A stretch of DNA of 50,415 nt from positions 1-50,415 of the forward strand of contig NZ_PVWF01000028.1 of NCBI RefSeq assembly GCF_003003995.1, read 5' to 3'. This document shows, piece after piece, positions 387 through 42,028 of this stretch. The notes beneath the pieces were generated by a model, which saw only the letters and a program-made list of their open reading frames with translations, ran no database searches and was not told the origin of the DNA. How positions within the stretch are numbered: position 1 is the first letter of the stretch; every line of letters begins with the position of its first letter. The DNA comes from Pleurocapsa sp. CCALA 161 (GTDB lineage Bacteria; Cyanobacteriota; Cyanobacteriia; Cyanobacteriales; Xenococcaceae). The position numbers and the translations under genes are program-made.

Positions 387-1877
387 ATGCCTCGATCGCC
401 GAAGCTAAAATTTGATCGCGGAACTTTGTTATTACATCCACCCCCAAAGGGGAGAGCATGGTTAGACTATGCTACCTGGGACGATCGCGTGGAAAAGTTT
501 CGCATTCCAGCTATTTACTATCGTTCACTAGTGGAAGCGCTTCAGGCAGATGATAAAAAAATTATTGATGAAGCTAAAGAATTTTATAGTCTAGAGCTAA
601 AATCTGTATCTCAATTTGAACCATACCCACATCAGGCAGAGGCATTACAAGCTTGGAAACAGTCGGGCAGAAAGGGAGTGGTAGTACTACCTACCGCAGC
701 AGGCAAAACCTATTTAGCCCAGTTGGCAATCCAGGCAACTCCCCGCACTACCCTAATAGTAGTGCCAACGTTAGATCTGATGCATCAGTGGTACGCTCAA
801 ATAGAATCTGCCTTTCCCAATACAGAGGTAGGTTTACTAGGAGGCGGTTCGCGCGATCGCACGCCGATTTTAATTGCCACTTATAACAGCGCAGCAATTC
901 ATGCTGAGACTTTAGGTAATCGTTATGCACTCCAGATTTTTGATGAGTGTCATCATTTACCCACCGACTTTTTCAAAGTTATTGCTGAATATGCGATCGC
1001 TCCCTATCGTTTAGGATTAACCGCTACCCCCGAACGCAGCGACGGTACTCATCGAGATTTAGATATCCTCATTGGTAAAATTATCTATCGTAAAACTCCT
1101 GAAGAACTTTCTGGAGGTACATTGGCAGATCATAAGATCGTACAGATGCGGGTTAAATTATCTGAGCAAGAACAGCTAAAATATGAACAGGCGATCGCTG
1201 TGCGCCGTAAATTTTTGAGAGAGTCGAATATCTCTTTAGGTAGTCTCGAAGGCTGGCAGCTATTTGTGCAAGCTAGTGCGCGATCGCCCCAAGGAAGAAA
1301 AGCAATGTTAGCCCATCGTGAAGCCAAAGAAATTGCTTTAGGTACAGATGCTAAACTCCGTATCTTAATTGATCTACTCAAAAAACATCAAACAGAGCGG
1401 ATCTTAATCTTTACCAACGACAACGCCACCGTATATCGTATTTCCCAGCAGTTTTTGATCCCTGCCATCACTTATCAAACAGTTGTTAAAGAGCGTCATG
1501 ATATTTTGACTAGATTCAAAGCTGGAGAATATAAAACCCTAGTTGCTTCCCACGTACTGAATGAAGGAGTTGATGTTCCCGATGCGCGAATTGCCATCAT
1601 TCTTTCAGGTACAGGTTCTACTAGAGAATATATTCAACGATTGGGTAGAGTTCTCAGGAAAGGCAATACAGCCAACAAACAGGCAATTCTCTACGAGGTT
1701 GTGACGGAAAACACCAGTGAAGAGAGAACTTCTGAACGTCGCCGAGGTGAACAAAATTATCAAAATCAACAGTCAGAATATCGACAGTTAAAGTTAATCC
1801 CCAATCAACCTAAACCAATCAAGAAACGAGAATTTAAAGTAGCCGAAGAATCTAAGCAATGGAATCAAGAAGAATAA
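387..1877 (+). CDS. DEAD/DEAH-box helicase, XPB/Ssl2-like
   Basis: Predicted superfamily 2 ATP-dependent helicase of the XPB/Ssl2-like (COG1061-type) group, acting on nucleic acid in the cytoplasm. The first RecA-like domain has a PHQ element (81-83), Walker A PTAAGKT (102-108), the DECH box (186-189) and motif III LTATPE (211-216). The second has a GVDVPDA motif near 394-400 and motif VI QRLGRVLR (417-424). The charged, glutamine-rich tail after about residue 440 has no recognised domain. The length of 496 residues fits the bacterial and archaeal members. In many genomes such helicases sit beside a Bax1-like nuclease (DUF790); none is present here. It converges with the LysR gene, with about 10 bases between the two stops. 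The family is secure; the substrate is unknown. Confidence 0.88.
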   Translation: MPRSPKLKFDRGTLLLHPPPKGRAWLDYATWDDRVEKFRIPAIYYRSLVEALQADDKKIIDEAKEFYSLELKSVSQFEPYPHQAEALQAWKQSGRKGVVVLPTAAGKTYLAQLAIQATPRTTLIVVPTLDLMHQWYAQIESAFPNTEVGLLGGGSRDRTPILIATYNSAAIHAETLGNRYALQIFDECHHLPTDFFKVIAEYAIAPYRLGLTATPERSDGTHRDLDILIGKIIYRKTPEELSGGTLADHKIVQMRVKLSEQEQLKYEQAIAVRRKFLRESNISLGSLEGWQLFVQASARSPQGRKAMLAHREAKEIALGTDAKLRILIDLLKKHQTERILIFTNDNATVYRISQQFLIPAITYQTVVKERHDILTRFKAGEYKTLVASHVLNEGVDVPDARIAIILSGTGSTREYIQRLGRVLRKGNTANKQAILYEVVTENTSEERTSERRRGEQNYQNQQSEYRQLKLIPNQPKPIKKREFKVAEESKQWNQEE

Positions 1878-16699: not shown

Positions 16700-16801
16700 A
16701 ATTTTACGAAACTGAAGCAGGCAGAGGTGATTCAATTTCGTTGGTATTGAATCAAACTAGATCGAAGTGATATTTTTAACAATTATTATATCAATCTTTT
16801 A

Positions 16802-17899
16802 TTAAGAACTGTTTAGGCGATCGCGGTATCTAAATGAAGAAGAATTATGGGATTGTCCCGATTCGCAAGCTTTAGTAATCAGATGATGTTGTGGTGATAA
16901 ATGACAGACAGGATCGGTAGCAGTTGCATCACCAGTTAACAACAGGGCTTGGCAACGACACCCCCCAAAGTCAACAGCTTTACGAGGGCAGCTACGACAC
17001 GGTTCTTCCATCCAGTCTGTGCCACGAAAGCGGTTAAAGGCTGCGGATTTAGACCAAATCCATTCTAAAGAGTGATCTCGAACGTTATCAAAATTCAGTT
17101 CGGGAATTGAAGCAGCCACCTGACAGGGTAGAACATCCCCATTGGGGGCAATTACCATCGTGCGCCGTCCCCAACCGCCCATACAGGGTTTGGGATACTG
17201 TTCGTAGTAATCGGGCAACACGTATACAACACCCATTGGGAAATACTTTTCTTGTTGGGCGATCGCTACTACTTGTTTGGCTCGTTCTAACTGTTCTAGC
17301 GTAGGTAATAGTGCATCTCGGTTAAGTAAAGCCCAGCCGTAATATTGTGTGTTAGCTAGTTCAACTCGATCTGCTTCTAAAGTTTTGCATAGTTCTAAAA
17401 TTTCTTCAATGCGATCTAGGTTATGGCGATGTAGCACCACATTAATAGTGAGAGGAAAATTCAACTGTTTGACTAAACGGGCTGCGGTAAGCTTTTGCTC
17501 GTAAGATGGAATTCCCGCAATATAGTTGAGTTTGTCTACTTGGCTATCTTGAAGACTAATCTGAATATGATCGAGTCCACAATCTCGTAGTTTGATTGCT
17601 CGATCTTTGGTGAAAAGAGTACCGGCGGTAATGAGAGTGGTATAAATACCCGTTGCTGTTGCGGTTTCTACCATCAACTCCAAATCTTGACGCAACATAG
17701 GTTCGCCACCTGTAAAGCCAAGCTGTAGAACACCCAGATTTGCAGCCTGTTTGATTAACTTTAGCCAGTATTCAGTAGTTAATTCTTGACGATATCTACT
17801 ACTATCGTAGTTAGTCGGATTAGAACAGTAAGGACAGCGCAATGGACAGCGATAGGTTAACTCAGCCATGAGGGTTAGAGGCAGATCTAGATCTATCAT
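16802..17899 (-). CDS. pqqE: PQQ biosynthesis radical SAM enzyme PqqE
   Basis: Radical S-adenosylmethionine enzyme that, with PqqD, forms the carbon-carbon cross-link between glutamate and tyrosine of PqqA, the first committed step of PQQ synthesis. The iron-sulfur motif CX3CX2C is at C18, C22 and C25 within TYRCPLRCPYCSNP, followed by the GGEP motif. The C-terminal SPASM region has CMGGWGRRTMVIAPNGD, then CRSCPRKA and CRCQ cysteines for auxiliary clusters. The length of 365 residues is normal. The start overlaps the pqqD stop by four bases (ATGA), so the two are translationally coupled. This is the last gene of the pqq run. Confidence 0.95.
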   Translation of the reverse strand: MIDLDLPLTLMAELTYRCPLRCPYCSNPTNYDSSRYRQELTTEYWLKLIKQAANLGVLQLGFTGGEPMLRQDLELMVETATATGIYTTLITAGTLFTKDRAIKLRDCGLDHIQISLQDSQVDKLNYIAGIPSYEQKLTAARLVKQLNFPLTINVVLHRHNLDRIEEILELCKTLEADRVELANTQYYGWALLNRDALLPTLEQLERAKQVVAIAQQEKYFPMGVVYVLPDYYEQYPKPCMGGWGRRTMVIAPNGDVLPCQVAASIPELNFDNVRDHSLEWIWSKSAAFNRFRGTDWMEEPCRSCPRKAVDFGGCRCQALLLTGDATATDPVCHLSPQHHLITKACESGQSHNSSSFRYRDRLNSS

Positions 17900-18183
17900 G
17901 GCGTTTTGTTAATCAACAATCCTCGTTTCAACATCTGTAATAACAAATTCTGCACCTGATTAATATCTACGTCGCAAAATTGACTTGATAAAATTTGCGA
18001 GATCGCAGTAAAAGAACGATAACCATCACAGATAGAAAGTATTGCTACCGCAGTAGGATTCAAAAACAACGCACCTTCAGGAAATAATAGCCAATGCTGC
18101 TGTCTAGCTGTACTCCAGTGTAAACGCACACCACTGGCAAAACCTAAATTGTCCAAATAATAAACTCGCTCTTCTTCGATCAT
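17896..18183 (-). CDS. pqqD: PQQ biosynthesis peptide chaperone PqqD
   Basis: Small protein of 95 residues of the PqqD/RRE fold, which binds the PqqA peptide and presents it to PqqE. Family signs are the GVRLHW segment, LLFPEGALFLNPTAVAIL with the PE and LN positions of PqqD, and the DGYRSF turn before the last helices. The stop codon overlaps the pqqE start. A 78-base gap with a palindromic repeat separates it from pqqC. Confidence 0.92.
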   Translation of the reverse strand: MIEEERVYYLDNLGFASGVRLHWSTARQQHWLLFPEGALFLNPTAVAILSICDGYRSFTAISQILSSQFCDVDINQVQNLLLQMLKRGLLINKTP

Positions 18184-18219
18184 TGTAGAAAAATTAAGTA
18201 ATTAGTTTACTTGCTACTT

Positions 18220-18247
18220 GTACGTGCGAACCGTCGTTCGCCCCTAC
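18220..18247. repeat. Degenerate palindromic repeat between pqqC and pqqD
   Basis: A 28-base stretch beginning GTACGTGCGAAC and ending GTTCGCCCCTAC is a worn inverted repeat of the GGGGCGAACG/CGTTCGCCCC type. The right half is intact and the left half has several changes. It sits inside the pqq run, where it may form an mRNA hairpin. It is related to the repeat at 15302-15321. Confidence 0.5.
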
Positions 18248-18261
18248 CTCTTACCTAATTG

Positions 18262-18978
18262 CTATTCAACAGGGCGAGTCTCACCTCGCTCAATTGCATC
18301 TAGCTGACTCCAGAGCAAATCGCATTTGAAGATTAATGCTCGAACGGCTTGTTCTTGACTGTTACGGGTTTGACAACGTTCTAAGACCAAGTTCAGGGCA
18401 TAACGAGCATCGCGGGGCGCTTGTTTTAAGCGTACTCGAAAGTATTCAAATCCAGCTGGATCGATCCAGAGGTAATGCTTTTCTAAAGCTGCTAACCTTA
18501 CCTGAATTGCACCAGGGCCAAACAATTCTGTCAAGGAAGAAGCGATCGCAATAATCCAAGGTTGAGTACGGCAAAAATTGATGTAAGCATCCACCGCATA
18601 GCGTATCCCAGGCAAAACATATCGTTCGTCTAATAGTTCTGTACGCTCAATCCCTGCCGCTTCACCCAATCTCAGCCAGGCTTCAATTCCCCCCTGATCT
18701 TCTCCTCGCCCATCATGGTCGATAATTCGCTCGATCCATTCTCTTCTTATTTCTCGTTCTGGACAATTGGCTAAAATAGCAGCATCTTTTAAAGGAATAC
18801 TTTTCTGGTAATAAAAGCGGTTTGCTGCCCACCGTCTTATTTCTGTTGGACTCAACAAGCCTTCATTCATTCGGCGATGAAAAGGATGAAGATCGTGATA
18901 TCGGAATTTTTGAGCATAAAGTCGGGCTGACAATTCCTCTACTGTCCAAGGTGGTTTTTGTTCTTCTACTCTTTGCAT
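18262..18978 (-). CDS. pqqC: Pyrroloquinoline-quinone synthase PqqC
   Basis: Cofactor-less oxidase that performs the last step of PQQ synthesis, ring closure and eight-electron oxidation of AHQQ. The helical-bundle fold shows strong family blocks: RWAANRFYYQKSIPLKDAAI, then IIDHDG with GGIEAWLRLGEA, and LPGIRYAVDAYINF, then SSLTELF. The length of about 238 residues from the ATG at 18978 is close to known PqqC (about 250). A TTG 42 bases upstream would add 14 residues with no family support. A 10-bp tandem repeat lies just upstream, and the 123-base gap from pqqB could hold an internal promoter. Confidence 0.94.
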   Translation of the reverse strand: MQRVEEQKPPWTVEELSARLYAQKFRYHDLHPFHRRMNEGLLSPTEIRRWAANRFYYQKSIPLKDAAILANCPEREIRREWIERIIDHDGRGEDQGGIEAWLRLGEAAGIERTELLDERYVLPGIRYAVDAYINFCRTQPWIIAIASSLTELFGPGAIQVRLAALEKHYLWIDPAGFEYFRVRLKQAPRDARYALNLVLERCQTRNSQEQAVRALIFKCDLLWSQLDAIERGETRPVE

Positions 18979-19000
18979 CTTGCTTGAGATAAATACAACA

Positions 19001-19040
19001 TTATTTCTAATTACTTCCAATTACTTCTAATTGCTTTACT
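19001..19040. repeat. 10-bp tandem repeat upstream of pqqC
   Basis: Four consecutive 10-base units on the plus strand, TTATTTCTAA, TTACTTCCAA, TTACTTCTAA and TTGCTTTACT; the first three differ from each other by one or two bases, the fourth is more degenerate. It lies 23-62 bases upstream of the pqqC ATG, in helical phase, as direct-repeat protein-binding sites often are. It may also be simple slippage in AT-rich DNA. Confidence 0.5.
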
Positions 19041-19101
19041 TGTTTATTAAAGGTATAGCCAATAACTGAACTTGCCTTCATTTAACTTTGTACGGCTATA
19101 A

Positions 19102-20016
19102 CTACAATTCAATAATTAATCCGTCATAACCAACTTCCATCCCTGCTGCTTCAACTAGTTGGCGTTGGGGTGAATTACCAATGAGAATTGGATTGGTGTT
19201 ATTAATATGAGTAAAAATTTTGCGCGACGAGGAAAGTTGAGATAGACGCTTGAGACTACCGCCCTCACTTGAAAGAGGTAAATGACCCATAGATAAAGCG
19301 GTGCGGTGTGACATTCCCAGTTTTACCAGTTCGTCATCTTGCCAAAAAGTACCATCTACCAAAATACAGTCACTCGACTCAAACCGAGCGATAATTGAGG
19401 GAGTCAATTCAGCTAATGCTGGTGCATAAGTAGCAACTCCACCAGTAGCGCGATCGCGGAAGGTAAACCCCACTACCCAATTACCCTCTGCCGAAGCTCG
19501 ATCTCGCATATACTTAGGCGGAGTACCAGTTAGTAAAAAGGCTTCTATTTCCAAGCTCGACTCTTTTTTGTCGCTAAAATCTATAACCGAACCTGGTTTG
19601 ATTTCCGACCATTCCACCCCACAGTAATTTTCTAGTATCCGCAGTAGAGAAAAACCTTCAGTCAATGCCCGTCTGATAGTATCCGTGCCGTAAATCTGAA
19701 GTGGTTCGTTGGACTCTCTCAAAATTATTAAACCTGCGGTATGGTCGATCTCAGCATCACTCAGCAGCACCCCTGCAATTGGACTAGAGCGAATTGAAGT
19801 AAAGGAGCGATCGCGAAGGCTTTCTAGTTGTTGACGCACATCGGGAGAGGCGTTGACCAACAACCAATCTCCCGAACTGCCACGAACCGCTAAAGATGAT
19901 TGAGTACGCTGATGTACTTCCTGTTCCCCTGTGCGAGTAGCCTGACAACCAGGACAGTTACAGTTCCACTGAGGAAATCCGCCCCCTGCTGCCGAACCCA
20001 AAATACGGATCTGCAT
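19102..20016 (-). CDS. pqqB: PQQ biosynthesis protein PqqB
   Basis: Metallo-beta-lactamase-fold protein of 304 residues that acts between PqqE and PqqC, with a proposed tyrosine/diol hydroxylation step. The start MQIRILGSAAGGGFPQWNCN is the family signature, with a CxCxxC zinc site at C19, C21 and C24; the SDAEIDHTAGL segment is the degenerate beta-lactamase metal motif. The ATG at 20016 shares its A with the TAA stop of pqqA (TAATG), so the two genes are translationally coupled; a longer frame from 20055 would read into pqqA. Confidence 0.94.
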   Translation of the reverse strand: MQIRILGSAAGGGFPQWNCNCPGCQATRTGEQEVHQRTQSSLAVRGSSGDWLLVNASPDVRQQLESLRDRSFTSIRSSPIAGVLLSDAEIDHTAGLIILRESNEPLQIYGTDTIRRALTEGFSLLRILENYCGVEWSEIKPGSVIDFSDKKESSLEIEAFLLTGTPPKYMRDRASAEGNWVVGFTFRDRATGGVATYAPALAELTPSIIARFESSDCILVDGTFWQDDELVKLGMSHRTALSMGHLPLSSEGGSLKRLSQLSSSRKIFTHINNTNPILIGNSPQRQLVEAAGMEVGYDGLIIEL

Positions 20017-20204
20017 TATTGCCACTGATGGACGTAAGCGGTTACTTCCATACAAAGATCAAACTCTTCAAACTCAGGTGACTCCCAGACGGCGATCGGT
20101 TTTCCCGTAGTAGAGAGGGCCGTATTTGTCGTATTTTTATTTCTATTGGCAGGATCTTTTTCTTTCTTAATAGAACCTAAATAATCTTTTGCTCGATCTA
20201 CCAT
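20016..20204 (-). CDS. pqqA: PQQ precursor peptide PqqA (62 residues, long leader)
   Basis: Peptide from which PQQ is made: PqqE links Glu and Tyr, later excised. The C-terminal 23 residues carry the PqqA pattern WxxPxFxE then EVTxY, here W40, P43, F45, with cross-link pair E53 and Y57. Known PqqA peptides are about 22-40 residues, with the core near the start; this one has about 39 residues in front, rich in K, N and T. I see no other start: the only internal Met is M52, inside the core. AGGAG lies ten bases before the ATG at 20204. The stop overlaps pqqB (TAATG), confirming the frame at this end. The core is certain; the long leader is likely but unproven. Confidence 0.88.
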   Translation of the reverse strand: MVDRAKDYLGSIKKEKDPANRNKNTTNTALSTTGKPIAVWESPEFEEFDLCMEVTAYVHQWQ

Positions 20205-20290
20205 TATATTTGTTACTCCTAATTGTTTACTGTGTTTTACTTTTAAAGTAGAGATTAATACCTATTACTAGTTCTCCTCGTCACCCAGTC

Positions 20291-21508
20291 TCAACCTTCA
20301 GGTTCAATACTAATCAAAGATCCATTCTGCTCGTCTGTTAAGACATATAGCATCCCGTCTGGACCTTGCCGTACATCCCGTACTCTTTGACCGATTGCAA
20401 TTGACTCTTCACCCAAAATATTCCCCTCTCCGTCGAGGTCGATATGACGAACATCACGAGAAACTAAGCCTCCGGCAAACAAATCTCCCTGCCATTGAGC
20501 AAAGCGATCGCTCGAATAAAATGCCAGTCCAGAAGGTGCAATTGATGGTGTCCAGATTAACTCTGGCTCTGGTACATCAGGACGAGAACTAATTTCTGCC
20601 ACTTTCCCCCCAGTGTATTCATCACTGTAGCTAACTTCAGGCCAACCATAGTTTTGCTTGGCTTTAATTATATTTACCTCATCGCCACCCCTCGAACCAT
20701 GTTCTGTTGCCCAAACACGTTTGGTAACAGGATCGATGGTCATTCCCTGAATATTACGGTGTCCATAACTCCAAATAGCCGAATTTGCGTCGGCATTATT
20801 AACAAAAGGATTGTCTTGAGGAATTGAACCATCATCGTTTAATCGCACCACCGAACCAAGATGAGAATTAAGATTTTGAGCCTGATTGCGGATCAAGTCG
20901 CCATTAAGCTGAATTGGCGGATTACCACCATCCCCTAACCCCACCAACATCGTATTATCGGGTAGCCAAACGATACGCGAACCAAAGTGTTGACCCTCTG
21001 GTTTGGTCGGATTGACTTCAAAAATATCCTCCCAATTTTGCAGACTAGTTCCATCAAAAGTAGCTCTGGCAACTTTGGTACGGTTCGCTTGGTTAGTACC
21101 ATCAGAATAGGTAAAGTAGACTAGCTGATTTTTAGCAAAATTAGGATGTAGGGAAATATCTAACAAACCCCCGTGATTGACGGCAAAGACTTCAGGAACT
21201 CCCGAAACAGGTTCTAAATCTAACTTTCCATCTCTGATAATTCTCAATCTTCCTGGTCGTTCGGTAATTAATATTGAGCCATCGGGCAGCCATGCCATCC
21301 CCCAGGGGCGCTCCAACCCTTGTGTGATAGTTGTCGTTCTAAAATTATTAGCAACCGCAACATTACTATCGGAGACAACGGGACTATTTGATGAGCCATT
21401 GGCAACCTTAGCAGAAGTAGATTCTTTAAGAACCGAACAACCCATAAAAGTTAAAAGAACGCTCGATAATAGTGCTGTTTTAATTTGACGTTTGATCATG
21501 CTATTCAT
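20291..21508 (-). CDS. PQQ-dependent soluble aldose dehydrogenase, lipoprotein
   Basis: Six-bladed beta-propeller of the soluble glucose/aldose sugar dehydrogenase (GDH-B/YliI) family, 405 residues. A signal peptide ends in lipobox LLTFMGC (C24), so it is probably anchored in the periplasm. The catalytic-base histidine is H113 in VNHGGLLDIS. Other blade signatures are GLERPWGMAW, GSRIVWLPDN, YGHRNIQGM (PQQ-binding arginine) and ATEHGSRGGDEVN. It oxidises aldoses to lactones with PQQ and calcium, passing electrons to a quinone or cytochrome. It lies 86 bases upstream of pqqA on the same strand, so enzyme and cofactor genes are probably cotranscribed. Two ATGs (21508, 21499) are possible. Confidence 0.92.
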   Translation of the reverse strand: MNSMIKRQIKTALLSSVLLTFMGCSVLKESTSAKVANGSSNSPVVSDSNVAVANNFRTTTITQGLERPWGMAWLPDGSILITERPGRLRIIRDGKLDLEPVSGVPEVFAVNHGGLLDISLHPNFAKNQLVYFTYSDGTNQANRTKVARATFDGTSLQNWEDIFEVNPTKPEGQHFGSRIVWLPDNTMLVGLGDGGNPPIQLNGDLIRNQAQNLNSHLGSVVRLNDDGSIPQDNPFVNNADANSAIWSYGHRNIQGMTIDPVTKRVWATEHGSRGGDEVNIIKAKQNYGWPEVSYSDEYTGGKVAEISSRPDVPEPELIWTPSIAPSGLAFYSSDRFAQWQGDLFAGGLVSRDVRHIDLDGEGNILGEESIAIGQRVRDVRQGPDGMLYVLTDEQNGSLISIEPEG

Positions 21509-21602: not shown

Positions 21603-21623
21603 ATGACAGAGAAATGACAGGAC
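21603..21623 (+). promoter_or_regulatory. 11-bp direct-repeat box in divergent promoter
   Basis: ATGACA at 21603 and again at 21614, an 11-base period, followed by GGAC. OmpR/PhoB-type response regulators bind tandem sites with this spacing. The box lies 79 bases before the response regulator start and 95 bases before the aldose dehydrogenase start. A nearly identical box (19 of 21 bases) in opposite orientation is at 22440-22460. Confidence 0.6.
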
Positions 21624-21701: not shown

Positions 21702-22376
21702 ATGTTAATTTTATTGGTCGAGGACGATCCTGCACAGCTAGAACCTTTGCAGACAGCCCTATCACAGGTAGGACATATAGTTGATGCGGTAGAAGACGGC
21801 TCGACGGCGCAATGGCTGATTAAAGAAAAAAGCTATGACTTATTAATTTTAGACTGGATGTTACCCCAGGTAAGCGGAGTTAAACTATGTCGACAGTATC
21901 GCAACTTAGGTAATACTTCTCCAGTACTCATGCTTACTGCCAAAGACACTACCACCGATAAGGTTGATGGTTTAGATGCGGGGGCAGATGATTATATTGT
22001 TAAACCTGTAGATGTTTTAGAGTTATTAGCCAGAGTCAGAGCTTTAGGCAGGCGATCGCCTTTATGGACGGGGGATACCTTAACTTTAGGGGATTTACAG
22101 CTAGATTTAACTACCCTGAACTTGGCAAAAAGAGAAAAAAAGATACAGCTTTCAGTCAGAGAATTTCAACTGATGGAGTATCTGATACGCCATCCTCAAC
22201 AAGTACTATCCCGCGATCAGATCGAACAAGCACTTTGGAGTTGGGGAAGTGAACCTGAGAGTAATGCGGTGACAACTTTGGTGAGAAGGCTAAGACAGCG
22301 TTTGGCAACAGTTGGGGCAAAAGATTGCCTGGAAACAGTTTATGGTATGGGATATCGTTTAGATGTTCGAGATTAA
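21702..22376 (+). CDS. OmpR/PhoB-family response regulator
   Basis: Two-domain response regulator of 224 residues. The receiver domain has the acidic pair D8 and D9, phosphoacceptor D51 (LILDWMLP), T79 and K101 (IVKPVD). The C-terminal winged helix (about 125-222) has ESNAVTTLVRRLRQRL as recognition helix and the YGMGYRL wing. It resembles cyanobacterial RppA-type regulators. No histidine kinase gene lies beside it, so the signal is unknown. It is divergent from the dehydrogenase/pqq genes and upstream of NDH-2. The flanking 11-bp direct repeats are of the kind such proteins bind. Confidence 0.92.
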   Translation: MLILLVEDDPAQLEPLQTALSQVGHIVDAVEDGSTAQWLIKEKSYDLLILDWMLPQVSGVKLCRQYRNLGNTSPVLMLTAKDTTTDKVDGLDAGADDYIVKPVDVLELLARVRALGRRSPLWTGDTLTLGDLQLDLTTLNLAKREKKIQLSVREFQLMEYLIRHPQQVLSRDQIEQALWSWGSEPESNAVTTLVRRLRQRLATVGAKDCLETVYGMGYRLDVRD

Positions 22377-22439: not shown

Positions 22440-22460
22440 GTCTTGTCATTTCTGTGTCAT
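22440..22460 (-). promoter_or_regulatory. Second 11-bp direct-repeat box, upstream of NDH-2
   Basis: On the minus strand it reads ATGACA, five bases, ATGACA, then AGAC. It is 19 of 21 bases identical to the box at 21603 and inverted relative to it. It lies about 137 bases before the NADH dehydrogenase start and 64 bases after the response regulator stop. The agreement in both half-sites and in the spacer makes chance unlikely. Confidence 0.6.
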
Positions 22461-22596: not shown

Positions 22597-23919
22597 ATGC
22601 TAAAAGATAAACCTAATCACAAACCAAAGATAGTCATCATCGGGGCTGGTTTTGCAGGATTGAGAGCAGTAAAAAACTTAGCCAGAATTGATGCAGAGAT
22701 ATTATTAATAGATCGCAATAATTACCATACTTTTGTGCCATTACTTTATCAAGTAGCAACTGCTTTTATTCCGCCGAAAACTGTCGCCTATCCCTTACAT
22801 AAATACTTGCATTCTGCTGCTAACACACGTTTTTTTCAAGCAGAAGTTTTAGCAATAGATTTTGAGCGCAAATTTGTCACAAGCGATCGCGAAAATATTA
22901 TTTATGATTATTTGGTAATAGCTACGGGGAGTAAAACCAAGTTTCTCGGTGTCGATGGCGCACCGAAATACACTTATCCCTTGCGAACTTTTAATGATGC
23001 GATCGCTTTACGGGATCGCATTTTGGGTAACTTGGAACGTGCTGTTACCTGTACTGACTACGAAAAACGACAACAATTACTCACTTTTATCATAGTTGGT
23101 GGTGGGGCAACAGGAGTAGAATTAGCAGGGGCTTTGAGTGAGTTAATTCAAACTAGCTTGGTTGATAACTATCCCCAACTCGATCCCAGAGAAGTTAAAA
23201 TCATACTGATTCATTCTGGAACTAGATTACTGGCTGATTTTCCAGAGCGTTTAGGAGACTACACTGGTAAACAATTACGCCGTCGCGGAGTAAAAATTCA
23301 CTTCTCTACTCGTGTTCATTCGGTAATGCCTGGAGCGATAGAACTAGACGACGGGACAATAGTTAAAACCGCAACGATTATTTGGACAGCAGGAGTAGAG
23401 GCTAATCTTCCTGCCGATTCCGAGAACTTATCTACAGCTAAAAGCTCTAAAGAACTTCTAAAAAATATAGCTCCGCGTCGCGATCAAGCCTGCGTCAGCT
23501 CGACATTGCAACTATTAAATTACCCTGAAGTTTATGCGGTGGGAGATGTGGCATATGTAGAACAAGACGGTAAACCACTGTTAGGAATTGCACCAGAAGC
23601 TTTACAGCAGGGAACAGCAGTAGCTGGTAATCTTAAACGACAACTTCGAGGATTGCCCCCCAAATCTTTTAATTACTTTAATAAAGGAACAGCAGCCATA
23701 ATTGCTCGCAACGCAGGGGTTGCTTATCTGTTTGGCAAAATTCCCTTAAAAGGCTGGTTCGCTTGGCTGTTGTGGTTAGGCATTCATTTATATTATCTAC
23801 CTGGTTTATCCAATCGCTTAATAGTTTTTAAAAGCTGGGTTAGAAACTATTTCACAGGAAAACGTAATCTTCGCCAAATTGCCTCTAAATCTACCAAAAT
23901 CCCTGTTAACGGCGCATAA
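22597..23919 (+). CDS. Type II NAD(P)H:quinone oxidoreductase (NDH-2)
   Basis: Flavoprotein of 440 residues that passes electrons from NAD(P)H to the quinone pool without pumping protons. Two dinucleotide folds are visible: IIGAGFAGLRA (FAD, 15-25) and IIVGGGATGVELAG (NAD(P)H). AVGDVAYVEQ is the second FAD contact, and APEALQQGTAVAGNL corresponds to the quinone-site AQxAxQ motif. The C-terminal hydrophobic patch (AWLLWLGIHLYYLPGL) would sit on the membrane. The direct-repeat box and a 220-base leader precede it; the DoxX gene follows after 47 bases, probably in one transcript. Confidence 0.9.
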   Translation: MLKDKPNHKPKIVIIGAGFAGLRAVKNLARIDAEILLIDRNNYHTFVPLLYQVATAFIPPKTVAYPLHKYLHSAANTRFFQAEVLAIDFERKFVTSDRENIIYDYLVIATGSKTKFLGVDGAPKYTYPLRTFNDAIALRDRILGNLERAVTCTDYEKRQQLLTFIIVGGGATGVELAGALSELIQTSLVDNYPQLDPREVKIILIHSGTRLLADFPERLGDYTGKQLRRRGVKIHFSTRVHSVMPGAIELDDGTIVKTATIIWTAGVEANLPADSENLSTAKSSKELLKNIAPRRDQACVSSTLQLLNYPEVYAVGDVAYVEQDGKPLLGIAPEALQQGTAVAGNLKRQLRGLPPKSFNYFNKGTAAIIARNAGVAYLFGKIPLKGWFAWLLWLGIHLYYLPGLSNRLIVFKSWVRNYFTGKRNLRQIASKSTKIPVNGA

Positions 23920-23966
23920 TCTCAATAATCACAATCTTAATCTTATCAATAGGAGTTTATTGGAAA

Positions 23967-24380
23967 ATGAAATACATACCTTTAGCTGCCCGTATTTGTC
24001 TTTGCATCATCTTTATTCATTCAGGAATTGGTAAGATTTTCGGTTTTGCCAGTACTGCTGAAATGATGGCAAATCAAGGCTTACCTATTGCCAATGTGTT
24101 ATTAATCTTTACGATCGCTTTCCAATTACTTGGCGGTTTTTCTTTGCTGTTAGGCTATAAAGTCAAAATCGGCTCGATCTTGCTAATTTTATTTTTAATT
24201 CCTGCCACCCTAGTATTTCACAATCCCATTGCCAATCCTGATGAAATAAATTCTTTTCTCAAAAACATCGGTCTAATTGGCGGATTATTGATGGTTATCT
24301 ATGCAGGTGCTGGCGCATTAAGTATCGATAACTCTACACAAAGATCGCAACACCAACAAAAAATAACCTCCAACCACTAA
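23967..24380 (+). CDS. DoxX-family membrane protein
   Basis: Four-helix membrane protein of 137 residues with the DoxX start LAARICLCIIFIHSGIGKI and a GGFSLLLGY turn. DoxX proteins have been linked to quinone-dependent oxidation (thiosulfate:quinone oxidoreductase subunit in Acidianus) and redox stress, but most are uncharacterised. AGGAG precedes the start. It probably shares a transcript with NDH-2, which fits a quinone-related role; this is inference. Confidence 0.82.
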   Translation: MKYIPLAARICLCIIFIHSGIGKIFGFASTAEMMANQGLPIANVLLIFTIAFQLLGGFSLLLGYKVKIGSILLILFLIPATLVFHNPIANPDEINSFLKNIGLIGGLLMVIYAGAGALSIDNSTQRSQHQQKITSNH

Positions 24381-40702: not shown

Positions 40703-42028
40703 TTGAATCATTATTCTTCGGCACTCGATCGCCAAAGACGTTTTTGGCAATTAGCAATCGTCAACGTGATTTCTAATCTCATGGTGCCAATGGCTAGTCT
40801 AGTTGATATGGCATTTTTGGGTCATTTGACGGAAATTAAGCATTTAGCGGGAGTGGCGATCGCCACAGTGTTGTTTAATTATATTTATTGGACGTTTGGG
40901 TTTCTCCGCATGGGGACGACAGGATTAACCGCCCAAGCTAGAGGTCGAGGAGATCGTGAAGTTGAGATACTTACTTTATTACGTAATAGTGCGATCGCTT
41001 TAGTCATTGGCATAATTATTCTTTTGCTACAGCAACCCTTAAGAGAAATTGGTTTTGTCTTACTACAAGCCGATCCTGAAGTACTTCAGGCAGGAAAAGC
41101 TTACTATAATGCCTTAATTTGGGGTGCGCCTGCCACTTTGCTCAACTTTGTCTTGTTGGGTTGGTTTTTGGGACGAGAACAAAAGCAAGGAGTGTTCCTA
41201 ATTTCTTTGATTAATAATGGCGCAAATATTATTTTAGATTATTTGTTTGTGGTGCGCTGGGGACAGGAGAGTGGAGGGGCGGGGGCTGCCACGGCCCTGA
41301 GTCAGTTAATCACTCTAATTGTTGGCTTAATTTTGGCAGATCGTCAACTTAGGGAAATATCTAGGCAGGAACAGCGATCGCTTAGACAATTGATTGGGCA
41401 AATTTGGGAAATATCCGCCTTCAAAGCTGCTTTTTCTCTAAATAAAGATATTTTAATCCGTACTTTGGCGCTAGTATCTACTTTTGCCTTATTTACTAAC
41501 CTCAGTGCGATGATGGGGACGACGACTTTAGCTGGGAATACTTTATTGTTGCAGGTGGTAACTCTGGCAGCCTATTTTATTGACGGGATTGCCTTCGCCA
41601 CCGAAAGTATGGCGGGTAATCTGCACGGACAGGGGGCGAAAGGGCAACTGCTGCCTTTACTGCAATTAGCGGGAAGTGTGAGCTTAATGTCTGGCTTGGG
41701 TTTTGCTGCTATGTTTAGCTTTTTCCCACTGCCTTTATTTGGTTTGTTAACTAGTCACCCTAAAGTAATTCAGCACATTGGGAGCTATCTTTGGTGGTTA
41801 TTTCCTGTGTTGGGCTTTGGTTCGATTGCCTACATGCTCGATGGCTATTTTTTAGGCTTAACCGCTGGAAAGATATTACGCCAGTCCACCTTAATTGCTG
41901 CGCTCATTGGTTTTGCTCCAATGGCGACCGCTGCTTGGTATTGGCAAATGAATCACCTACTCTGGCTGGCTTTAGCTTTATTTATGGCAACTCGAAGTAT
42001 TACTCTAGGGTGGAAAATTAATTATTAA
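40703..42028 (+). CDS. MATE-family efflux transporter (DinF-like)
   Basis: Twelve-helix Na+- or H+-coupled multidrug/organic-cation exporter of 441 residues. Early block PMASLVDMAFLGHL and GFLRMGTTGLTAQA are DinF-branch marks. It starts at TTG (40703): the conserved N-terminal part QLAIVNVISNL needs this start, and the next Met is residue 27, too late. A GGAAAAAAG run just before is a weak ribosome-binding site. Confidence 0.87.
   Translation: MNHYSSALDRQRRFWQLAIVNVISNLMVPMASLVDMAFLGHLTEIKHLAGVAIATVLFNYIYWTFGFLRMGTTGLTAQARGRGDREVEILTLLRNSAIALVIGIIILLLQQPLREIGFVLLQADPEVLQAGKAYYNALIWGAPATLLNFVLLGWFLGREQKQGVFLISLINNGANIILDYLFVVRWGQESGGAGAATALSQLITLIVGLILADRQLREISRQEQRSLRQLIGQIWEISAFKAAFSLNKDILIRTLALVSTFALFTNLSAMMGTTTLAGNTLLLQVVTLAAYFIDGIAFATESMAGNLHGQGAKGQLLPLLQLAGSVSLMSGLGFAAMFSFFPLPLFGLLTSHPKVIQHIGSYLWWLFPVLGFGSIAYMLDGYFLGLTAGKILRQSTLIAALIGFAPMATAAWYWQMNHLLWLALALFMATRSITLGWKINY

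What the first reader, a model, noticed from the sequence alone, without database searches (positions are those of the whole stretch)
16802..21508. Complete PQQ pathway clustered with a PQQ-dependent aldose dehydrogenase in a cyanobacterium
Seen: pqqA, B, C, D and E in order on the minus strand, led by a lipoprotein of the soluble PQQ aldose dehydrogenase family, with coupling at pqqA/pqqB (TAATG) and pqqD/pqqE (ATGA). Known: PQQ synthesis is best described in proteobacteria and, to my knowledge, is uncommon in cyanobacteria. Inference: this organism makes PQQ for periplasmic sugar oxidation feeding the quinone pool, perhaps in the dark or in heterotrophic growth.
Basis: partly seen in the sequence, partly recalled or inferred. 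Interest (0 to 1): 0.8.

Follow-up and report, generated by a model that had tools for sequence, protein, structure and literature searches.

The report
Cyanobacterial operon making cofactor PQQ
A cyanobacterium carries, in one run of genes, the core set for building the redox cofactor PQQ plus a sugar-oxidising enzyme that would use it, a set that few cyanobacteria have and that they appear to have acquired once from outside.

Summary
In detail: a lipoprotein of the soluble PQQ glucose/sorbosone dehydrogenase family (GSDH) followed by pqqA-B-C-D-E, all on the minus strand. PqqA-E each pass their curated NCBIfam cut-offs, the TAATG and ATGA junctions are real, and the genes are under purifying selection. 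It is not contamination. It is rare and patchy: PqqC passes cut-off in 1 of 386 genomes sampled from the phylum, 16 of 388 from the order and 5 of 27 in the family (a sixth shows GSDH, pqqA, pqqB and PqqE). PqqB+C+E of the cyanobacteria form one clade (100/100) beside Solirubrobacterales-type Actinomycetota, so one acquisition fits best. GSDH was probably recruited inside cyanobacteria: it precedes pqqA or sits between pqqA and pqqB in 13 of 20 cyanobacterial loci, and the arrangement follows the tree. It is the only PQQ-dehydrogenase candidate found in this genome. Variant traits: PqqA with a long N-terminal extension (62 aa here), no pqqF in the cluster, and Ile where Klebsiella PqqC has His154 (non-His in 78 of 100 rows, so not by itself a sign of a dead enzyme). 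Relatives often keep GSDH without pqq. PQQ production and the route of electrons are untested. A rare variant of a known pathway, not a new kind of system.

The parts
20291..21508 (-). GSDH: lipoprotein (signal judged by eye) of the glucose/sorbosone (aldose sugar) dehydrogenase family, 405 aa; likely PQQ client, first gene of the run
   Evidence: Pfam PF07995 436 bits; aligns to 2g8s, 7cdy and soluble glucose dehydrogenase 5min; His174, Arg251, Asn252, Arg377 in 29 of 29 GSDH rows
20016..20204 (-). pqqA: precursor peptide, 62 aa from the only ATG ahead of the core; core VWESPEFEEFDLCMEVTAYVHQWQ holds the Glu and Tyr (spacing E-x-x-x-Y)
   Evidence: TIGR02107 24.3 bits over cut-off 20; PF08042 31.6 over 21.1; start codons listed
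19102..20016 (-). pqqB: metallo-beta-lactamase-fold protein, 304 aa from the ATG that overlaps the pqqA stop (TAATG)
   Evidence: TIGR02108 379.6 bits; CxCxxC, D..DH and H.NN kept in 15 of 15 cyanobacterial rows
18262..18978 (-). pqqC: PQQ synthase, 238 aa from ATG (252 aa from TTG 19020)
   Evidence: TIGR02111 302.4 bits; alignment to Klebsiella PqqC 1otw and 3hml; active-site columns
17896..18183 (-). pqqD: peptide chaperone, 95 aa
   Evidence: TIGR03859 57.5 bits over cut-off 46
16802..17899 (-). pqqE: radical SAM/SPASM enzyme, 365 aa; start overlaps the pqqD stop (ATGA)
   Evidence: TIGR02109 512.7 bits; CxxxCxxC plus 7 Cys and 1 Asp of the auxiliary clusters in 93 of 93 rows
21603..21620 (-). 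exact direct repeat CTGTCAT-N4-CTGTCAT, 95-112 bases upstream of the GSDH start: possible site of an OmpR/PhoB-type regulator (hint only)
   Evidence: the regular-expression form matched upstream of GSDH in 2 of 26 loci (window, L038); no genome-wide enrichment
21702..22376 (+). divergent response regulator of the OmpR/PhoB type, no kinase beside it: candidate regulator of the run (inference)
   Evidence: Pfam Response_reg and Trans_reg_C; 69% identical regulator followed by a kinase-like gene in G396

Best explanation
A working PQQ biosynthesis operon joined to its client. PqqE with PqqD cross-links Glu and Tyr of PqqA; a general M16-type or other protease frees the cross-linked pair; PqqB hydroxylates it and PqqC makes PQQ (steps by homology to the known pathway, recalled). 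The cofactor, with calcium, loads the lipoprotein GSDH outside the cytoplasm, which oxidises aldose sugars. The set came into cyanobacteria once, from or beside a Solirubrobacterales-like actinobacterial line; GSDH was already common in the group and was drawn into the operon there; the set has since been lost or passed on patchily. Shown here: genes, order, motifs, selection, single clade, linkage. Inferred: enzyme activity, PQQ production, loading, substrate, direction of transfer. Unknown: protease, PQQ export, electron acceptor.
For: HMM hits over cut-off for all five pqq genes. Ligand columns kept and 13 of 14 listed PqqC positions kept in the window. dN/dS well under 1. Same module in relatives: GSDH-A-B-C-D-E in G388, G395, G407 and Richelia UBA3308, GSDH-A-B visible in G390; A-GSDH-B-C-D-E in six others and A-GSDH-B visible in G593. 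GSDH beside pqq in 13 of 20 distinct cyanobacterial loci but in 2 of 78 other loci. One clade of 15 cyanobacterial rows, 100/100, sister to four Actinomycetota rows, 100/99; arrangement types need only 2 changes on that tree. GSDH is the only PF07995 match in the own genome; no TIGR03075 match there. M16 peptidase matches on five contigs of the own genome.
Against: No expression or PQQ measurement. PqqC has Ile172 where Klebsiella has His154. No pqqF in the run. Three of 16 PqqC-bearing genomes have no high-scoring GSDH, and 6 of 20 loci have no GSDH of this type beside pqq with one more unresolved, so GSDH is not always the client. Nine family genomes with a high-scoring GSDH show no PqqC, so GSDH may live on scavenged PQQ or do something else. 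The GSDH tree mixes linked and unlinked copies.
Confidence: 0.82

Rival explanations
1. The operon makes PQQ, but its main use is acid release of phosphate or minerals, or supply of PQQ to neighbours, rather than energy from sugar.
For: PMC7367855 (passages) proposes phosphate release by related dehydrogenases in a cyanobacterium and PQQ as a public good from proteobacteria. The repeat upstream of GSDH resembles the E. coli Pho box (recalled).
Against: No phosphate gene in the operon.
Confidence: 0.3
2. The cluster is a relict on the way out: genes still readable but the pathway no longer used, as GSDH alone persists in many relatives.
For: G387 keeps pqqA and GSDH but shows no PqqC or PqqE match in its genome. 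GSDH without pqq is common in the family.
Against: In the window all six frames are intact with low dN/dS and the metal ligands are kept.
Confidence: 0.08
3. The PQQ set was gained several times by separate transfers from outside cyanobacteria.
For: Patchy presence, 16 of 388 genomes in the order sample; different neighbours in G395, G407 and G389.
Against: All 15 cyanobacterial rows form one clade in 100% of 200 bootstrap trees. Spread between cyanobacteria is still possible: Richelia groups with the window's family. The outside rows are only the best 80 of a capped scan plus four plasmid loci.
Confidence: 0.05
4. The contig is contamination from another bacterium.
For: GC of the run is 43-45%, above most of the window outside 9-21 kb (mostly 34-42%, with lower values near the end). 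The genome is rated 2.13% contaminated.
Against: Flanking genes, among them NuoH, are 96-99.5% identical to those of same-genus G388; G388 has the same run with the same pump downstream; G395 has the run inside a 6.4-Mb contig. The pump region, present in relatives without pqq, has similar GC.
Confidence: 0.01

Closest known systems
pqqABCDE(F) operons of Pseudomonadota (Klebsiella, Rahnella, Burkholderia)
   Same: Gene content A-E and order; PqqE, PqqB and most PqqC residues
   Different: No pqqF here (Rahnella has it next to pqqE); GSDH leads the run; PqqA 62 aa against 23-24 aa (annotated CDS lengths); PqqC His154 replaced by Ile
pqq clusters of Solirubrobacterales-type Actinomycetota (L120, L121, L122, L137; labels as given by submitters)
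   Same: Nearest non-cyanobacterial relatives in the tree; PqqC 67-68% identical; Ile at the His154 position
   Different: PqqA 24 aa where seen (L121, L122); no GSDH match in the fetched stretch
Aldose sugar dehydrogenase / GSDH family (2g8s, 7cdy, soluble glucose dehydrogenase 5min)
   Same: PF07995 domain; His, Arg and Asn taken as catalytic and PQQ-contact residues align (roles recalled)
   Different: Lipoprotein-type signal; encoded in the same run as the PQQ genes
GSDH of cyanobacteria without pqq (G409, G401, G399, G412)
   Same: 61-80% identical to the window's, same key residues
   Different: No pqq gene near and no PqqC in the genome (G409 is 81% complete): would depend on outside PQQ

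Membership tests
PQQ biosynthesis operon pqqABCDE | All of PqqA, B, C, D, E present over curated cut-offs | tested here: met
PQQ biosynthesis operon pqqABCDE | PqqA with Glu and Tyr spaced E-x-x-x-Y in the W-P-F-E core | tested here: met
PQQ biosynthesis operon pqqABCDE | PqqA a short peptide (usually some 22-29 aa, recalled; not strictly a defining feature) | tested here: inconclusive
   62 aa from the only ATG ahead of the core, longer than usual; a non-standard start giving a short form is not excluded
PQQ biosynthesis operon pqqABCDE | PqqE radical-SAM and auxiliary cluster ligands | tested here: met
   11 positions kept in 93 of 93 rows; ligand names recalled
PQQ biosynthesis operon pqqABCDE | PqqC active site as in Klebsiella | tested here: inconclusive
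   13 of 14 listed positions kept in the window; His154 is Ile; the place is fixed by the difference between 1otw and 3hml
PQQ biosynthesis operon pqqABCDE | A protease (PqqF or substitute) | tested here: inconclusive
   no pqqF in the run; M16 matches on five contigs elsewhere, role untested; PMC2294125 (passages) notes Acinetobacter needs only four genes
PQQ biosynthesis operon pqqABCDE | Makes PQQ | not testable with these tools
   needs LC-MS
Soluble GSDH / aldose sugar dehydrogenase | PF07995 domain with catalytic His and PQQ-binding Arg, Asn | tested here: met
NCBIfam TIGR03606 subfamily (glucose/sorbosone PQQ dehydrogenase) | Score over the curated cut-off | tested here: not met
   148.4 of 434.55 bits: a relative, not a member of that subfamily
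Soluble GSDH / aldose sugar dehydrogenase | Oxidises sugars with PQQ | not testable with these tools
   needs assay

The most novel reading that the evidence does not exclude
Cyanobacteria hold a distinct PQQ system: acquired once from an actinobacterial-like source, with a precursor that carries a long N-terminal extension, a synthase that works without the His154 held (recalled) to be part of the oxygen site, and its dehydrogenase recruited into the operon twice or moved once. Cyanobacteria with it would supply themselves, and perhaps their mats, with a cofactor that others must scavenge, under a regulator that also controls the neighbouring type-II NADH dehydrogenase.
Probability: 0.4. Interest if true: 0.62.

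Novelty: new variant of a known kind. Interest (0 to 1): 0.5.

Why it matters
[quoted passage not shown] Named strains that carry pqq genes of the clade described here (Calothrix sp. NIES-4105, Mastigocoleus testarum BC008, Pleurocapsales LEGE 10410) make the self-supply question directly testable. The absence of His154 in many PqqC proteins outside the proteobacterial group tests how far the oxygen-site model of PqqC (recalled) holds.

Tried and rejected
Contamination was rejected (flanks and relatives). Ancient vertical inheritance from the root of Cyanobacteriota is not supported: the one Obscuribacterales row (L156) falls with other Actinomycetota and Bacillota, not with the cyanobacteria (long branch, so its place is unsure). 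A read of G496 and G505 as broken clusters was withdrawn: both have PqqE elsewhere in the genome. The idea that the downstream RND pump is a PQQ exporter was dropped as a specific claim: at six relatives' pump sites no pqq gene stands beside it. A regulon defined by the CTGTCAT repeat was tested in the whole own genome and gave no enrichment: 31 matches at up to 2 mismatches against 38 for the reversed control; two of the 31 are exact, one of them the site before GSDH, the other on contig C57 before an unrelated gene. No Rfam match at gathering thresholds in the window. Promoter and terminator scans were at chance level. A paper on the distribution of pqq genes that I recalled is not held. Prior print: ten library searches listed no paper whose title or abstract start reports a cyanobacterial pqq operon; I read passages of two papers only, lists were capped, and subscription journals are mostly missing, so absence from print is not shown.
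Full report
What is there. On the minus strand from 21508 down to 16802 lie a lipoprotein of the glucose/sorbosone dehydrogenase family (GSDH), pqqA, pqqB, pqqC, pqqD and pqqE. PqqA-E each pass the curated NCBIfam cut-off, and GSDH scores 436 bits with PF07995. pqqA/pqqB overlap as TAATG and pqqD/pqqE as ATGA; GSDH and pqqA are 86 bases apart with no terminator-like site listed between them. An RND efflux pair follows 66 bases after pqqE in the same direction, counted to its listed TTG start. pqqF is absent from the run; the genome has M16 peptidase matches on contigs C83, C120, C63, C64 and C13 that could do its work, which is untested.

Are the genes sound? Between the window and the near relative G388 dN/dS is 0.18 (GSDH), 0.45 (pqqA), 0.23 (B), 0.12 (C), 0.35 (D), 0.20 (E); against G395 it is 0.10, 0.20, 0.12, 0.09, 0.20 and 0.10 (simple Nei-Gojobori counts; synonymous change against G395 is high, 0.9 to 1.7, so those ratios are rough). 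The three radical-SAM cysteines and eight auxiliary-cluster ligands of PqqE are kept in 93 of 93 rows, 17 of 17 cyanobacterial; the PqqB CxCxxC, D..DH and H.NN positions in 15 of 15 cyanobacterial rows (names of ligands recalled, positions from the alignments). In PqqC, 13 of 14 listed positions are the usual residue in the window (labels recalled), but the place of Klebsiella His154 is Ile. That place is fixed, where the entries 1otw (His) and 3hml (Ser) differ. Over 100 rows it is I in 39, M in 29, H in 22, V in 7, L in 3; all 22 cyanobacterial rows (19 distinct loci) have I. The rows are the nearest relatives of a capped scan plus my own picks, not a balanced sample. The His rows are mostly Pseudomonadota but include single rows from Binataceae, Methylacidiphilaceae, Entotheonella and Vicinamibacteria. 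PMC2294125 (passages) says His154 moves into the active site on substrate binding. Since many rows with an otherwise ordinary pqq cluster lack it, I read this as natural variation, not loss of function; activity is untested.

PqqA is unusual. The only ATG codons in the window's frame give 62 aa or start inside the core. Of 16 distinct cyanobacterial PqqA frames in that listing, 12 have no ATG, GTG or TTG that would give a peptide shorter than 54 aa with its core; L038, L097, L100 and L101 could start nearer (30, 34, 25 and 29 aa), and so could the one of G387. The Actinomycetota sister rows L121 and L122 have 24 aa. The extension is in frame but less constrained than the core (dN/dS 0.66 and 0.31 against 0.0 and 0.09, on few sites), as expected for a loose leader, or for a stretch that is not always translated.

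How rare is it? TIGR02111 over cut-off: 1 of 386 genomes drawn from the phylum (the other 12 genomes with a match score at most 65 bits against a cut-off of 240 and were not classified), 16 of 388 drawn from the order, in 8 of 149 genera, and 5 of 27 in the family. The draws overlap. G390, 82% complete, was missed by PqqC but has GSDH, pqqA and a cut pqqB at a contig end and a PqqE, so at least 6 of 27.

Where did it come from? A tree of PqqB+C+E on 84 rows (of 100 loci; 3 duplicates and 13 with a missing or short gene dropped, among them cyanobacterial L039, L098, L103 and L104) puts all 15 cyanobacterial rows in one clade, 100/100, and these with four rows labelled Actinomycetota (two SZAS MAGs, two Solirubrobacterales), 100/99. 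Direction is inferred from rarity in cyanobacteria; the tree alone gives kinship. Richelia UBA3308, a Nostocaceae, groups with the window's family, so spread within cyanobacteria is likely.

GSDH and the operon. Of 20 distinct cyanobacterial loci, 6 show GSDH before pqqA (window, G388, G395, G407, G390, Richelia), 7 show it between pqqA and pqqB (L097, L101, L106, L107, L116, L118, G593), 5 have none in the fetched stretch (L099, L102-L105), L100 has only a 23% relative on the other strand, and G389 is cut by contig ends. G390 and G593 are themselves cut by contig ends after pqqB. Of 78 other loci, 2 have a match (L165 a fragment, L180 at 38%). On the tree the three arrangements (GSDH first, GSDH second, none of this type) fall into three clades (100/100, 100/99, 100/99) with 2 changes. 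GSDH itself looks older in the group: 26 of 27 family genomes have a PF07995 match and 15 of 27 one above 425 bits, 9 of these without PqqC and not G390, though three of the nine genomes are under 90% complete; linked and unlinked copies are mixed in its tree. The nine unlinked copies of the same type from these genomes keep the seven positions checked; three distant copies differ at three of them. G387 (40 contigs, rated 100% complete) keeps an intact-looking pqqA and GSDH with no PqqC or PqqE match in the genome: probably a remnant of loss.

The site. At six relatives' pump loci (G070, G387, G393, G396, G391, G389) the RND pair stands without pqq beside it, and DNA similarity to the window stops at 16735-16814, that is, about the end of pqqE. 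In four of these (L108, L109, L111, L112) a small PadR-like gene (named from memory) lies there instead. G388 has the same run and the same pump as the window.

Client and function. The own genome has one PF07995 match and no TIGR03075 match; other quinoprotein models were not searched. Among 16 PqqC-bearing genomes 13 have a GSDH above 430 bits; G522, G624 and G658 do not. So GSDH is the likely client here, but not everywhere. Its acceptor is unknown.

Regulation, a hint only. An exact CTGTCAT-N4-CTGTCAT lies 95-112 bases before GSDH and a 2-mismatch copy at 22443-22460 before the type-II NADH dehydrogenase gene; 3 of 100 shuffles of the window reach two such matches. The second copy is identical before the same gene in G388, where the upstream gene differs, and is not seen in G401 or G390. 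Before GSDH the repeat matched in 2 of 26 loci (window, G407), with looser forms by eye in G388, G389, G390 and G395. The divergent response regulator between the two sites lacks a kinase; a kinase-like gene 48% identical to the one that follows its G396 relative stands on own contig C124, with no match to the regulator in the 18 kb around it, next to another RND system with a 2-mismatch repeat. Genome-wide the pattern is not enriched (31 against 38 control).

Verdict. The pathway is of a known kind; the cyanobacterial version is a distinct branch with its own arrangement and precursor. Interest 0.5.

Noticed in passing
window 21702-22376 and own contig C124 about 90884-92170: Response regulator without a kinase beside the operon; a matching kinase-like gene without a regulator lies on C124 beside an RND system, as if the pair had been split.
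   Followed up: partly
window 22597-24380: Type-II NADH dehydrogenase followed by a DoxX-family gene; in G401 and G390 this pair is followed by an RND-like gene (L018, L019).
   Followed up: partly
L226 5874-7246 (G387:C36): pqqA and GSDH kept together in a genome with no PqqC or PqqE match: a remnant, or a peptide with another use.
   Followed up: partly
L104 (G496), L103 (G505): pqq genes are dispersed: only pqqB and pqqC matched in L104 and pqqA-D in L103, while PqqE lies elsewhere in each genome.
   Followed up: partly
L037 5961-7202 (G395): A transposase-like ORF (TnpB-like, by eye) stands just before the GSDH-pqq run, a possible means of movement.
   Followed up: no
window 40703-42028: MATE transporter scoring over the NCBIfam cut-off for the guanitoxin-cluster transporter (561.6/525); no other genes of that pathway were looked for.
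   Followed up: no
window 387-1877: Helicase-like protein matching XPB and DNA phosphorothioation restriction models, below both cut-offs.
   Followed up: no
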